From: Clostridiales bacterium
GTDB taxonomy: Bacteria > Bacillota > Clostridia > Christensenellales > UBA3700
DNA length: 34,798 nt
Direction: 5' to 3'
Assembly: GCA_015055975.1 (NCBI GenBank)
Contig: SVHF01000020.1
Coordinates: 1-34,798 of the forward strand
Shown piece after piece: positions 26,226 through 29,368 of this stretch (its first letter is position 1; each line of letters opens with the position of its first letter). The notes below the pieces were generated by a model. That model searched no databases, was not told where the DNA came from, and was given only the letters and a program-made list of their open reading frames with translations. Made by a program: the position numbers and the translations under genes.

Positions 26226-26254
26226 TCTATACAAAATATTTTACTATAAAACAA
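26226..26254 (-). promoter_or_regulatory. Promoter of the HAD phosphatase gene
   Basis: On the minus strand TTGTTT (26254-26249) and TATAGA (26231-26226) are separated by 17 bp, 23 bp before the ATG. An inverted repeat CTTCAATATGAAG (26255-26267) abuts the -35 on its upstream side and could be an operator half or part of the accessory junction. Confidence 0.6.
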
Positions 26255-26286
26255 CTTCAATATGAAGATATTGATTTTCTACTTTT

Positions 26287-26342
26287 AATATGTGCTGATA
26301 AACCTTTTATTTTCATGGTGTACAACTATTGCAGTGCTGATA
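26287..26342. repeat. Repeat A, downstream of the Vat-type gene
   Basis: A 56-bp element 6 bp past the end of the Vat-type gene, similar to repeat B at 27071-27128 (about three-quarters identical by hand alignment, two-base gap). Each copy is bounded by direct TGCTGA words: GTGCTGATAAA at 26292 and again at 26334, 42 bp apart. It has no coding role I can see. Confidence 0.8.
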
Positions 26343-26348
26343 AATTCT

Positions 26349-26996
26349 TTATTTTAATAATTGTTTTAAAGAACTCTTTACCTTTTCTAAATCATTATCC
26401 GTTAATAAAGGAATTAGTTTTTTGACTTCGTCTATATCTCTATCCCACCATTTTAACTTAAGTAACATATCAATTGTTTCTTTGTCAAAACGATATTTCT
26501 TTACTATTGCAGGATTTCCAACAGCAATACCATATGATGGAACATCTTTAGAAACAACTGCATTAGCTCCAATTATAGCACCATCACCAATATGTACACC
26601 TGGCAATATCACAGCGTTTTGTCCTATCCAAACATCGTTTCCTATAACAGTATCTCCTCTATTACCTCTTTGTCCAAAAGGTCTAGATAATCCTTTAAAC
26701 TCATCTATTATTTCAAAAGGGTACGCAGTCAATGAGTCTAACATATGATTGGCTCCATTCATTACAAATTCTACACCTCTTGCTATACTGCAAAATTTGC
26801 CAATAATAAGTTTGTCTCCCATAAAATCATAATGATGTGTAACATGTTTTTCAAAGGATTCAGGACCTTCATTCATATCATCATAATATGAATAATCCCC
26901 TACAATAATATTAGGATTTGAAACAACGCTATTTATGTAACAAAAAGTCTTAAATTTTGAATTTGGATAAATAGGTTTAAATTTATTATCTGACAT
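26349..26996 (-). CDS. Vat-type streptogramin A/xenobiotic O-acetyltransferase
   Basis: A 215-residue hexapeptide-repeat acetyltransferase with the Vat/XAT signature YYDDMNEGPESFEKHV then HHYDFMGDKLIIGKFCSIARG, the catalytic His84 in NGANHML, and DVWIGQNAVILPGVHIGDGAIIGANAVV. Vat enzymes acetylate group A streptogramins (virginiamycin M, dalfopristin); close CatB-type relatives act on chloramphenicol. The Vat-like PExFExxV block favours the former, but many chromosomal relatives have no tested activity. GGGGGAG precedes the ATG. The gene is flanked upstream by a scar of the rumA 3' end and downstream by repeat A, suggesting acquisition. Confidence 0.85.
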   Translation of the reverse strand: MSDNKFKPIYPNSKFKTFCYINSVVSNPNIIVGDYSYYDDMNEGPESFEKHVTHHYDFMGDKLIIGKFCSIARGVEFVMNGANHMLDSLTAYPFEIIDEFKGLSRPFGQRGNRGDTVIGNDVWIGQNAVILPGVHIGDGAIIGANAVVSKDVPSYGIAVGNPAIVKKYRFDKETIDMLLKLKWWDRDIDEVKKLIPLLTDNDLEKVKSSLKQLLK

Positions 26997-27019
26997 ATAT
27001 TTACTCCCCCTTTCATTAT

Positions 27020-27062
27020 TTCACTTTCCAATAGTCAGCAAACAAACTGTTTCAACGTGGGT
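27020..27062 (-). pseudogene. Duplicated 3' end of rumA (att-like scar)
   Basis: Read on the minus strand, 27062-27020 encodes T-H-V-E-T-V-C-L-L-T-I-G-K-stop, nearly the same as the real rumA C-terminus (KHVETVCLLTRK). At the DNA level 27034-27059 and 28014-28039 agree at 24 of 26 positions. Nothing of the rest of rumA is present. The 3' end of this gene (rum) is a known integration site for mobile elements in Bacillota, so this looks like the second attachment site left by an insertion. Confidence 0.75.
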
Positions 27063-27070
27063 GCAGTTAT

Positions 27071-27128
27071 AATAAGTGCTGACAAACCATCATTTTTTTC
27101 AGGGTGTGCGACTATTGTAATGCTGATA
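27071..27128. repeat. Repeat B, downstream of the YoaP-like gene
   Basis: A 58-bp element directly after the stop of the YoaP-like gene, related to repeat A. Its bounding words are GTGCTGA (27076) and ATGCTGA (27120), 44 bp apart. TGCTGAC at 27077-27083 is also the inverse of GTCAGCA at 27034-27040 in the rumA scar, giving a 7-bp inverted repeat that brackets the junction. Confidence 0.8.
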
Positions 27129-27130
27129 TT

Positions 27131-27883
27131 TTATTTTAAAGTATTATATAGTTTTAAGAATTTTGTATCATTCATTTGCTCATTAGTGATATATTTTCCA
27201 TCTTTAAATAATGCATATGTAGTTATAGGAGTAGGAGCGTTTTGTGCTTCTTCTTTACTACTTATATGGATTGCTTTAAATGAAATATTATTGTCTTTAG
27301 CTGTTTGCTTTACAATAGGAACATATTTTCCATTGAATGGGCATTGACTTGTATAATATAAAACATAACCACGTTCTTCAATATGTGGGTGTTTTGCACA
27401 TTCTTTAAACATTGGTTTTGATGCATTCTTATCAAATGGAAAGTACCATAACTGTATTCCATTATCAGCTTCATCTGCTACTTCAAAACCTTTATATGCT
27501 AAAAATTTAGGATCCGCTAAAAATGGTAATTTCTTTTTACTAGATAAAATACATAACCCAAGCTTTCCTTTTGACTTAGATTCTTTAATGCAAGCATCTA
27601 ATAAATCATTTGAATAGCCATGACCTTTAAATGATCCTGATACCCATAAACAATCTATATACATGTAACCATTTGCATCTAATGGATTCCAGGCGTTTTC
27701 TGCTGGTATATATTCTATAAAGCATTTACCTCTTTCAACTGATTTTAAAAATACTAATCCATCATCAAATCTATCTTTTAACCAATGCTTTTTCGATGAC
27801 ACTTGAATATCATTATTATTAGATATCGCACAACATATATGTTCTTTTTCTAAATTTTCTTTTGTTACTTGAATATACTCCAT
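27131..27883 (-). CDS. YoaP-like GNAT acetyltransferase with C-terminal thioredoxin-like domain
   Basis: A 250-residue two-domain protein matching the length and layout of Bacillus YoaP. The N-terminal GNAT domain contains YIDCLWVSGSFKGHGYSNDLLDACIKE (acetyl-CoA loop) and FLAYKGFEVADEADNG. The C-terminal YoaP-like domain begins GYVLYYTSQCPFNGKYVP, a thioredoxin-like start with a single cysteine, followed by TPITTYALFKDGKYIT. The substrate is unknown. It lies directly after rumA and before repeat B and the rumA scar, so it is the only gene of the apparent insert. No terminator lies between it and rumA. Confidence 0.85.
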   Translation of the reverse strand: MEYIQVTKENLEKEHICCAISNNNDIQVSSKKHWLKDRFDDGLVFLKSVERGKCFIEYIPAENAWNPLDANGYMYIDCLWVSGSFKGHGYSNDLLDACIKESKSKGKLGLCILSSKKKLPFLADPKFLAYKGFEVADEADNGIQLWYFPFDKNASKPMFKECAKHPHIEERGYVLYYTSQCPFNGKYVPIVKQTAKDNNISFKAIHISSKEEAQNAPTPITTYALFKDGKYITNEQMNDTKFLKLYNTLK

Positions 27884-28003
27884 ACTTATACTCCTATATT
27901 AATCTTTCAAACATCCAATCGGAACAACTAAACCTCCGTCTTACTTCAATGAAATTTAACACATTTGAACATTTTATTTTTTTTTGTTTTTGGCTATTTT
28001 GGA
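27884..28003 (-). other. Junction between rumA and the YoaP-like gene
   Basis: This 120-bp gap has an A-rich run just after the rumA stop (minus strand CAAAAACAAAAAAAAATAAAA) and no terminator hairpin, unlike what is expected at the end of an operon. A weak promoter may lie near 27935-27905 (TTGTTC and ATTAAT, 18-bp spacing). ATAGGAG precedes the YoaP-like ATG. Confidence 0.4.
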
Positions 28004-29368
28004 TTATTTCCTTGTCAGCAAACAAACAGTTTCAACATGCTTTGTTTGTGGGAACATATCATATGGCGTTATTGATTCAATGCTATATTTTGTTATTAAA
28101 GATGCCAAATCTCTCGCAAGCGTTGCTGGATTGCAAGAAATATATATTATCTTTCCTGGCTCTGCTTGAAGCATTGCATCCAAAACTTTTTGATCGCATC
28201 CTTTTCTTGGAGGATCAATTATAACTACTGAATTATTCCCTTTAAACTCATCTATAACTTTAGGAAGCTCAATTGCAGCATCTCCACAAATATTTGTTAT
28301 GTTTGAATTGCCGTTTACTTTTGCTAATCTATTTGCATCTTCTACAGCTTCTTTAACAATCTCAATTCCGACTACTTTATTTGCATGCTTAGCAACAATA
28401 TTAGACATTATGCCAATACCCGAATAAACATCTGCTACATTTGCATTTGGAATCTTTTCTACCTCATCACATACTCTTGAATAGATTAAGTCTCTAATTT
28501 CGTCATTTATTTGCAAGAACGAATATGGGTTAACGTTAAATTTAACACCTAACGCACTTCCTTCTATTAAATTATCCCCATAAATACATACTAAATCATC
28601 GCCAAGAATTACGTTTGTCATCTTTAAATTTTTCGATACGTATAGGTTAAATGGTATATTTAGCGCTTTCAAAGAATCTATTAGCTTAGTATCATTTGGA
28701 ATCTTGTGCCCATTAATAACCAGACATATAGAAAAAGCTTCATTTATACGTCTTATAACTAAATGCCTTATAAGTCCAGTGTTAGATTTTTCATCGTAAG
28801 TTGAGATCTTTTCTTTGTTTATAAACTCAACCACCTTATCTACAAATAACTGCATAGTTGAATCATGAAGTGGACAATCCCCTAATCCTTTAGATACAGA
28901 TTTTTCAAATGGAACAAAGATATGCGAATTCTGTTTATAGAATCCTGCCATTGCTTTTCCATTTACTTTTCTAATTGGGATTTGTTCTTTATTTCTATAT
29001 CCGAACTTTTTATCACCATGAACAACATCATCGACATTCGAATCAATTCTACATGCCCTATCTATACAATTTTTGATGTTTGTCTTTTTTACTTGAAGAG
29101 AATATTCATAATCTACGTGCTGCATATCGCAACCGCCACATCTAAAGAATATTGGGCAAAGTGGTTTAATTCTATGACTTGATGCTTCAAGAACTTTTAT
29201 AACTTTAGCTCTTGCAAAACTCTTCTTGACTTCAATAACCTGGGCTTTTATTTTTTCGCCAAGAAGTGCGCCATCTATGAATATTACAAGATTATCTAAC
29301 CTTGCAACGCCTTCGCCCGCCATTCCGATTGATTCAATTGAAACTTCGATAATATCGTCTTTCTTCAT
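28004..29368 (-). CDS. rlmD: 23S rRNA (uracil-5-)-methyltransferase, RumA/RlmD family
   Basis: A 454-residue RNA m5U methyltransferase. The N-terminal TRAM domain (about 1-60, ESIGMAGEGVARLDN) is followed by a 4Fe-4S motif with Cys71, Cys77 and Cys80 (CPIFFRCGGC) and a fourth Cys in GDCPLHD. The Rossmann domain has ADVYSGIGIMSN, VIIDPPRKGCD and the catalytic Cys in YISCNPATLARDL. It modifies U1939 and/or U747 of 23S rRNA; RlmCD does both in Bacillus. It starts 14 bp after the riboflavin transporter gene, so the FMN riboswitch may influence it. Its 3' end is duplicated about 980 bp downstream. Confidence 0.93.
   Translation of the reverse strand: MKKDDIIEVSIESIGMAGEGVARLDNLVIFIDGALLGEKIKAQVIEVKKSFARAKVIKVLEASSHRIKPLCPIFFRCGGCDMQHVDYEYSLQVKKTNIKNCIDRACRIDSNVDDVVHGDKKFGYRNKEQIPIRKVNGKAMAGFYKQNSHIFVPFEKSVSKGLGDCPLHDSTMQLFVDKVVEFINKEKISTYDEKSNTGLIRHLVIRRINEAFSICLVINGHKIPNDTKLIDSLKALNIPFNLYVSKNLKMTNVILGDDLVCIYGDNLIEGSALGVKFNVNPYSFLQINDEIRDLIYSRVCDEVEKIPNANVADVYSGIGIMSNIVAKHANKVVGIEIVKEAVEDANRLAKVNGNSNITNICGDAAIELPKVIDEFKGNNSVVIIDPPRKGCDQKVLDAMLQAEPGKIIYISCNPATLARDLASLITKYSIESITPYDMFPQTKHVETVCLLTRK

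What the first reader, a model, noticed from the sequence alone, without database searches (positions are those of the whole stretch)
26247..28039. Cassette-like insertion of acetyltransferase genes at the 3' end of rumA/rlmD
The last 26 bp of the rumA coding end (28014-28039) recur at 27034-27059 with two differences, still encoding HVETVCLL but ending T-I-G-K-stop instead of T-R-K-stop. Between the copies lies about 980 bp with one gene, a YoaP-like acetyltransferase. Directly beyond lies a second lone resistance-type gene (Vat-like). Each gene is followed by a related ~57-bp repeat. The unit 'attachment word, one gene, 3' repeat' looks like stacked mobile cassettes without their own recombinase. 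The rum 3' end is an established integration target for ICEs and IMEs in Bacillota, but single-gene units with a shared 3' repeat there are not something I know of. The insertion model is inference; the repeats are seen directly.
Basis: partly seen in the sequence, partly recalled or inferred. Interest (0 to 1): 0.72.

Follow-up and report, generated by a model that had tools for sequence, protein, structure and literature searches.

The report
One-gene mobile cassettes at rumA
At the end of a ribosomal-RNA methylase gene this bacterial genome holds a one-gene DNA unit that also sits, with the same two ends, at the same gene in distantly related bacteria, and that is likely moved by integrase enzymes borrowed from larger mobile elements.

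Summary
In detail: the rumA 3'-end word (28014-28039) recurs 24/26 at 27034-27059, and both genes are followed by related tails. The insertion model is strongly supported for the YoaP unit. The same ~0.98-kb unit, 92-94% identical between the words, lies at rumA in two hosts whose RumA is only 30-34% identical to the window's, each time followed by a different, displaced rumA end. A relative of one host (RumA 92%) has the same displaced end and next gene, but another 5.4-kb occupant, with no recombinase among the seven ORFs checked. Another genome has the same left end with another cargo gene. Nine of 39 rumA loci in the window's family carry a displaced word downstream, none on the other strand. 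rumA is a known target of large serine integrases (PMC4701971, passages), and relatives of one serine integrase end beside this word in 11 of 17 loci. The enzyme that moves the window's units was not found; supply in trans is inferred. The Vat unit's far end is unresolved. Best filed as a miniature, one-gene variant of known recombinase-less cassettes (CIME, pseudo-SCC).

The parts
28004..29368 (-). rumA/rlmD, host target gene; its last residues (ETVCLLTRK) match those of rumA in L065 and L066
28014..28039 (-). rumA-end word 1, predicted left attachment site (attL) of the YoaP unit
   Evidence: 29.4 bits
27060..28039 (-). YoaP unit, 980 bp, one gene, no recombinase
   Evidence: 92.1% and 93.7% identical to the units in L065 and L066; 300-nt flanks 62.5-69.1% in the same kind of forced global alignment
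27131..27883 (-). cargo 1: YoaP/GNAT acetyltransferase, 250 aa
   Evidence: 94% identical relatives in distant hosts
27058..27128 (-). right-end tail of the YoaP unit: TATCAGCA and TTTGTCAGCA repeats; the second lies exactly 25 nt before the word in window, L065, L066 and L067
27034..27059 (-). rumA-end word 2, predicted right attachment site (attR) of the YoaP unit and left end of the Vat unit
   Evidence: 23.4 bits with a held-out matrix
26349..26996 (-). cargo 2: Vat-type xenobiotic acetyltransferase, 215 aa
26292..26346 (-). tail of the Vat unit (related to the first tail); no rumA word beyond it

Best explanation
The 980-bp stretch 27060-28039 carries one gene and no recombinase, is bounded by two copies of the rumA end word, and recurs with the same ends at rumA in other bacteria; it is predicted to be a mobile cassette put there by a large serine integrase supplied in trans by another element. 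Shown: boundaries, recurrence, different displaced ends behind it, exchange of occupants, and a shared left end with different cargo. Inferred: the unit circulates as a circle whose tail+word junction is attP; a rumA-specific integrase from a resident ICE, IME or prophage recombines it with the CAYGTNGARAC codons of rumA; the unit supplies a new rumA 3' end (CLLTRK) and pushes the old one downstream; a later unit enters at the rumA-proximal copy, so units stack with the newest next to rumA. The Vat stretch is likely the older neighbour, with a lost or eroded far end.
For: (1) L065 and L066: YoaP 94.4% and 93.6% identical against RumA 33.8% and 30.3%, same unit ends, then other ends, HVETVVVLERR.. 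and HVETICLLELMK*. (2) G824 (RumA 92.2% identical to that of L066): 94.6% over 278 nt up to TTGARAC, then a 5.4-kb occupant with an AbiEii-type protein, then the same HVETICLLELMK* end and the same next gene; no recombinase in the seven of its eight listed ORFs that were checked in Pfam. (3) G861: same left end, cargo an AAA/DUF4143 ATPase, then an end like the rumA end of L256 (HTECVAVLEKDSELE). (4) Displaced words in 9 of 39 family rumA loci: 9 on the rumA strand against 0 opposite over 295 kb; the reversed stretches, both strands, gave 2 hits >=12.5, the best 16.7. (5) Of 80 YoaP loci kept, 15 hold rumA and 21 hold words >=18 bits, 29 words on the YoaP strand (rumA's own ends included) and 0 on the other. 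(6) Single serine integrases target rumA, with the other att inside the integrase gene (PMC4701971, passages); relatives of the L228 serine integrase (PF00239 and PF07508) have the word within 83 nt of the end of the match on its strand in 11 of 17 loci. (7) Ends of units elsewhere and integrase-element ends share TGTTYCC: 8 of 13 and 6 of 12 ends (12 and 6 hits; shuffle means 0.11 and 0.04 hits).
Against: No match to PF07508 or PF00589 lies within 40 kb of rumA on the same contig in the 45 of 46 family genomes searched (one search set), though many contigs end sooner; the three serine-integrase loci of this genome hold no word >=11.5 bits in the 4-7 kb fetched around each. The window's tail motif T(G/A)TCAGCA is absent from all 12 integrase-element ends examined, so the enzyme for this end family is not identified. 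Two scans of viral contigs for its ends found nothing; the class search for its right end (391 genomes) matched only this genome and one 3-mismatch site elsewhere that looks like unrelated coding sequence by eye. All evidence is from assemblies, many of them MAGs; no circle was seen. The Vat unit is not closed. The crossover point is not fixed: L065 and L066 place it on different sides of one codon.
Confidence: 0.62

Rival explanations
1. Decay remnant (CIME): an ICE or IME integrated at rumA, lost its integrase and transfer genes, and left one gene between attL and attR; stacking arose by accretion and transfer in cis with a later element.
For: Matches the published CIME definition (PMC5704250, passages). 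Integrase remnants do occur in arrays elsewhere: a C-terminal fragment in L143, 92% identical to the end of a full serine integrase in L227, and in L080 a word inside a short ORF that looks to me like an integrase C-terminus (no Pfam match).
Against: The same 0.98-kb unit with the same two ends and no remnant DNA is found in hosts with 30-34% identical RumA; independent decay to the same ends is unlikely. The same left end carries another gene in G861.
Confidence: 0.22
2. The units travelled inside larger composite elements that later excised, leaving the cassette behind.
For: Words and serine integrases occur together in larger stretches (L228, L230, L233/L234).
Against: No such composite with these ends was found in the searches made; the window, L065 and L066 show the bare unit.
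Confidence: 0.12
3. Integron-type cassettes with single-strand attC sites and a tyrosine integrase.
For: One gene plus a 3' repeat, stacked.
Against: The tails do not fold better than shuffles, and no tyrosine recombinase lies within 40 kb of rumA on the same contig in the family genomes searched (one search set). attC boxes were not searched with a model.
Confidence: 0.02
4. Chance similarity or duplication of the rumA end during a local rearrangement.
For: One strong control hit: the reversed window reaches 18.3 bits with the held-out matrix and 18.7 with the full one.
Against: Word 2 scores 23.4 bits with the held-out matrix; the strand bias is 9:0 and 29:0; the unit recurs in distant hosts.
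Confidence: 0.02

Closest known systems
CIME (cis-mobilizable element)
   Same: Keeps attL and attR, has no integration or transfer genes, stacks in tandem at the end of a target gene (PMC5704250, passages)
   Different: CIMEs are defined as decayed ICEs or IMEs; here a one-gene unit recurs with the same ends in distant hosts, and one left end carries different cargo
rumA-targeting serine-integrase ICEs and IMEs (for example ICE_Spy2096_rumA, IME_SpnAP200_rumA)
   Same: Same target gene; for the ICEs, exchange of the 3' part of rumA (PMC4701971 and PMC5704250, passages; the IME table there says 'internal site of rumA')
   Different: Those carry the integrase, with one att inside its gene in the ICEs; these units carry none
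Staphylococcal cassette chromosome composite islands and pseudo-SCC at orfX/rlmH
   Same: Insertion in orfX/rlmH, direct repeats, tandem composite islands (PMC7029136, passages); that rlmH is a 23S rRNA methyltransferase gene and that pseudo-SCC lack ccr genes is recalled
   Different: Other gene, other att sequence, much larger cassettes
ssrA genomic islands of Dehalococcoides
   Same: Many cargo islands at one gene, 16 of 31 with the integration module (PMC3146451, abstract)
   Different: Other target; reported from one group, and the eight vcrABC islands are ~12 kb
Integron gene cassettes
   Same: Works alike: one gene plus end sequence, inserted next to a fixed site (recalled)
   Different: No tyrosine recombinase found nearby and no folding attC-like tail

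Membership tests
CIME | Retains attL and attR | tested here: met
   Words at 28014-28039 and 27034-27059 for the YoaP unit; for the Vat stretch the far site was not found
CIME | No integration or transfer genes | tested here: met
   Only one gene in the unit
CIME | Derived by decay of an ICE or IME | tested here: inconclusive
   No remnant seen in the unit; same ends in distant hosts argue against recent decay
CIME | Mobilised in cis with a neighbouring element | not testable with these tools
   Needs a transfer assay
rumA serine-integrase ICE/IME | Insertion in the rumA 3' end with replaced end | tested here: met
rumA serine-integrase ICE/IME | Encodes its own serine integrase | tested here: not met
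SCC | ccr recombinase genes and insertion in orfX/rlmH | tested here: not met
   The target is RlmD; no recombinase in the unit
Integron cassette | attC site that folds as a single strand | tested here: not met
   z -0.20 and +1.86; R and L boxes not modelled
Integron cassette | Nearby intI tyrosine integrase | tested here: not met
   one search set: none within 40 kb on the rumA contig

The most novel reading that the evidence does not exclude
A third natural gene-cassette economy beside integrons and SCC: pools of recombinase-less, mostly one-gene cassettes with family-specific end modules (GTCAGCA ends, CCTTTYGTAGTCTTC ends, TGTTYCC ends) circulate between distant gut bacteria through the 3' end of rumA, hijack rumA-specific serine integrases, rewrite the end of RumA at each entry and stack newest-first, shipping drug-modifying and defence genes.
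Probability: 0.5. Interest if true: 0.85.

Novelty: new variant of a known kind. Interest (0 to 1): 0.7.

Why it matters
It would be a minimal mobile unit, about 1 kb with one gene, that spreads single acetyltransferase and defence-type genes across distant gut bacteria without carrying any mobility gene, so tools that look for recombinases would miss it. The rumA word gives a simple handle to find such cargo genome-wide, and the system makes the question of integrase-in-trans cassette capture directly testable.

Tried and rejected
A third word beyond Vat (reading H-I-E-V-V-L-stop near 26263): rejected, at most 2.6 bits, and G004 has a related sequence upstream of the HAD gene by eye. Tails as terminators, structured RNAs or attC hairpins: not supported. 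An autonomous parent with these ends: two viral-contig scans gave 0; the class pattern search gave this genome and one 3-mismatch hit in what looks like unrelated coding sequence. Plasmid and phage searches gave only partial matches of about 65-76% identity among the rows listed, mostly to vat genes where annotated; one unannotated phage record matches the YoaP part. The genus itself gave no clean empty site: G003 lacks both genes but has another single gene (ArsB/CitMHS type) before a weak word of 15.9 bits; G001 had no rumA match and G004's rumA end is off its contig, so YoaP-Vat next to rumA is not shown there. The claim that the serine integrases of this genome act on the site: no support.

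Weak points kept in counts: L170 (13.6 bits) and L018 (15.9) are among the 9 of 39; 7 of 39 score 17 or more. Of the 39 loci 26 have at least 9.7 kb downstream and 8 have under 2 kb, so 9 is a lower bound. Mononucleotide shuffles gave 0 of 408,708 positions >=13 bits, but the reversed window gave one of 18.7 and the reversed family stretches two >=12.5. Of the 11 of 17 integrase loci, L251 scores only 12.8, L238/L239 are near-duplicates, and L241's hit, on the other strand, was not counted. The 40 control loci (0 words >=20) partly overlap each other and one was fetched for a tyrosine recombinase; at >=11.5 bits the 45 loci had four hits of 11.8-13.6. One search kept 80 of 575 relatives. In one search the ends were chosen by me from those already found.
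Full report
OBSERVATION. All features lie on the minus strand. rumA/rlmD (28004-29368; RlmD equivalog) ends in HVETVCLLTRK*. The 26-nt word 28014-28039 recurs at 27034-27059 with 24/26 identity and reads HVETVCLLTIGK*. Between the two lies one gene, a YoaP-domain GNAT acetyltransferase; beyond the second lies a Vat-type acetyltransferase (the closest solved relatives are streptogramin A and virginiamycin acetyltransferases). 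Each gene is followed by a related tail; the 24-nt pattern made from both tails has no other hit in the 1.59-Mb genome at up to 3 mismatches. A matrix of rumA ends built without the window's genus and the two YoaP hosts (42 words) scores the copies 25.1 and 23.4 bits; the reversed window as control reaches 9.8 and 18.3 on its two strands. No word is found beyond Vat (best 2.6 bits).

THE YOAP UNIT IS AN INSERTION. A scan of genome contigs with the YoaP protein kept 80 of 575 relatives. In L065 (Clostridiales bacterium MAG-R023) and L066 (Bacillales bacterium UBA3206; names from the record titles) the gene lies directly after rumA, whose last residues are the same CLLTRK as in the window, and is followed by a right end of the type GTTTGTCAGCAYTTATTAYAACTGYACCCATGT and then by another rumA end: HVETVVVLERR.. 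and HVETICLLELMK*. YoaP is 94.4% and 93.6% identical to the window's, RumA 33.8% and 30.3%. Globally aligned, the unit between the words is 92.1% and 93.7% identical over 974 and 978 aligned positions, against 62.5-69.1% for 300-nt flanks treated the same way. L067 (Erysipelotrichaceae bacterium SIG217) has the same right end followed by HVETVVLIEQQK..; its contig starts upstream of the gene. A rumA of that genome (G821) ends in a word that matches the unit's left end for about 40 nt, 510 nt before a contig end; that the two belong together is not shown. In the window's genus, G002 has YoaP directly after rumA and a second, 90.9% identical copy on another contig followed by a weak word (13.6 bits) and another small gene.

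SAME SITE, OTHER OCCUPANTS. G824, a relative of the L066 genome with 92.2% identical RumA, shares 94.6% over 278 nt up to TTGARAC of rumA. Then come about 5.4 kb with a helix-turn-helix protein, other small genes and an AbiEii-type protein (PF08843), and then HVETICLLELMK* and the same downstream gene as behind the YoaP unit in L066. Of its eight listed ORFs seven were checked in Pfam; none is a recombinase. So one displaced end is found behind two different occupants in related genomes. G861 has the unit's left end (HVETVCLLTKK*SKI..) but an AAA/DUF4143 ATPase as cargo, and then, translated by eye, HTECVAVLEKDSELEELEAL, like the rumA end of L256 (HTECVAVLEKDSELESLEKL; the genome of L070, titled Anaeroplasma bactoclasticum).

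HOW COMMON. Of 39 rumA loci examined in the window's family (26 with at least 9.7 kb downstream, 8 with under 2 kb), 9 have a word >=12.5 bits within 10 kb downstream, all on the rumA strand, against 0 on the other strand over the same 295 kb; 7 of the 39 score 17 or more. The reversed stretches, both strands (588,684 positions), gave 2 hits >=12.5 and none >=18. Inserts include one-gene stretches with a GmrSD_N-domain protein (L161), a 224-aa protein (L163), a lipoprotein-like ORF on the other strand (L156) and a 134-aa protein (L147), and longer ones (L149, L153). A CCTTTYGTAGTCTTC-type sequence (at most 1 difference) lies just before the displaced word in L147, L149, L153 and L156, though the cargo differs; it had two other distinct hits in all loci held. 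Of the 80 YoaP loci, 15 contain rumA and 21 contain words >=18 bits: 29 words on the YoaP strand, rumA's own ends included, and 0 on the other. In 398 genomes of the phylum a stricter word pattern matched in 78; two same-strand pairs lie 0.8 and 1.2 kb apart (G526, G619), one 3.3 kb apart around a single P-type ATPase gene (G800), three others 5 to 22 kb. rumA itself was not found in the stretches fetched for G526, G619 and G800.

MECHANISM. Single serine integrases are known to target rumA, with the second att site inside the integrase gene and exchange of 3' ends (PMC4701971, passages); three Streptococcus IMEs with related serine integrases sit in rumA (PMC5704250, passages); the rumA 3' end is described as an insertion hotspot in Dehalobacter (PMC11578063, passages). 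In L228 the stop codon of a serine integrase (PF00239, PF07508) lies in the word. Of 17 viral-contig relatives of that integrase, 11 have the word from 13 nt before to 83 nt after the end of the match, on the same strand; 40 control loci, nearly all around other serine recombinases of the family, had no word >=20 bits. Ends of units in other genomes share TGTTYCC with integrase-element ends (8 of 13 and 6 of 12). The window's own end family has a different motif: T(G/A)TCAGCA at -25 from the word in the four copies examined, with a second copy further in, and an inverted copy in the left word of window, L065 and L066. I therefore infer, and do not show, that a serine integrase acts in trans on the window's units, and leave open which one. 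No integrase of either class lies within 40 kb of rumA on its contig in the 45 of 46 family genomes searched, though many contigs end sooner (one search set). Since each entry would occur at the rumA-proximal word, the YoaP unit is likely younger than the Vat stretch.

COMPARISON AND VERDICT. The YoaP unit meets the structural part of the CIME definition but not clearly its assumed origin; it works like an SCC or integron cassette but fails their membership tests. I searched an open-access library and saw no description of one-gene cassettes at rumA in those listings; this does not cover subscription papers or preprints. New variant of a known kind, interest 0.7.

Noticed in passing
L147, L149, L153, L156 (window's family): A second end family: different inserts at rumA share a right end like CCTTTYGTAGTCTTC before the displaced word; by eye L145, L147, L149, L153, L159 and L174 share a left end.
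   Followed up: partly
L080, 2911-6900: Array at rumA with eight word-like copies within 4 kb, rumA's own included, with one to three ORFs per long interval, YoaP among them; paired left-end copies are 42 nt apart.
   Followed up: partly
L229: Words with an ABC transporter ATPase gene (PF00005) and a short Vat-like ORF nearby (named by eye); rumA itself was not found in this 11-kb stretch.
   Followed up: no
Phage records MN270260, MN270262, MN270276, OP662532: Streptococcus suis phages with 'rum' in their names have similarity to the Vat gene, suggesting Vat as a recurrent cargo at this site. Only the search listing was seen.
   Followed up: no
Phage record MT836372: An unannotated 10.8-kb faecal phage record matches part of the YoaP gene at 67%.
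   Followed up: no
L180, L284, L080 (after the word at +1381): rumA ends or words run into, or are followed by, a related ~80-120-residue extension without a Pfam match where tested; in L180 and L284 genes that look like restriction-modification genes follow.
   Followed up: no
G002 contigs C104 and C164 (L019, L020): Two YoaP copies 90.9% identical over 452 nt, each at a contig end.
   Followed up: partly
window 15768, + strand: A weak rumA-word match (12.9 bits) far from rumA, probably chance.
   Followed up: no
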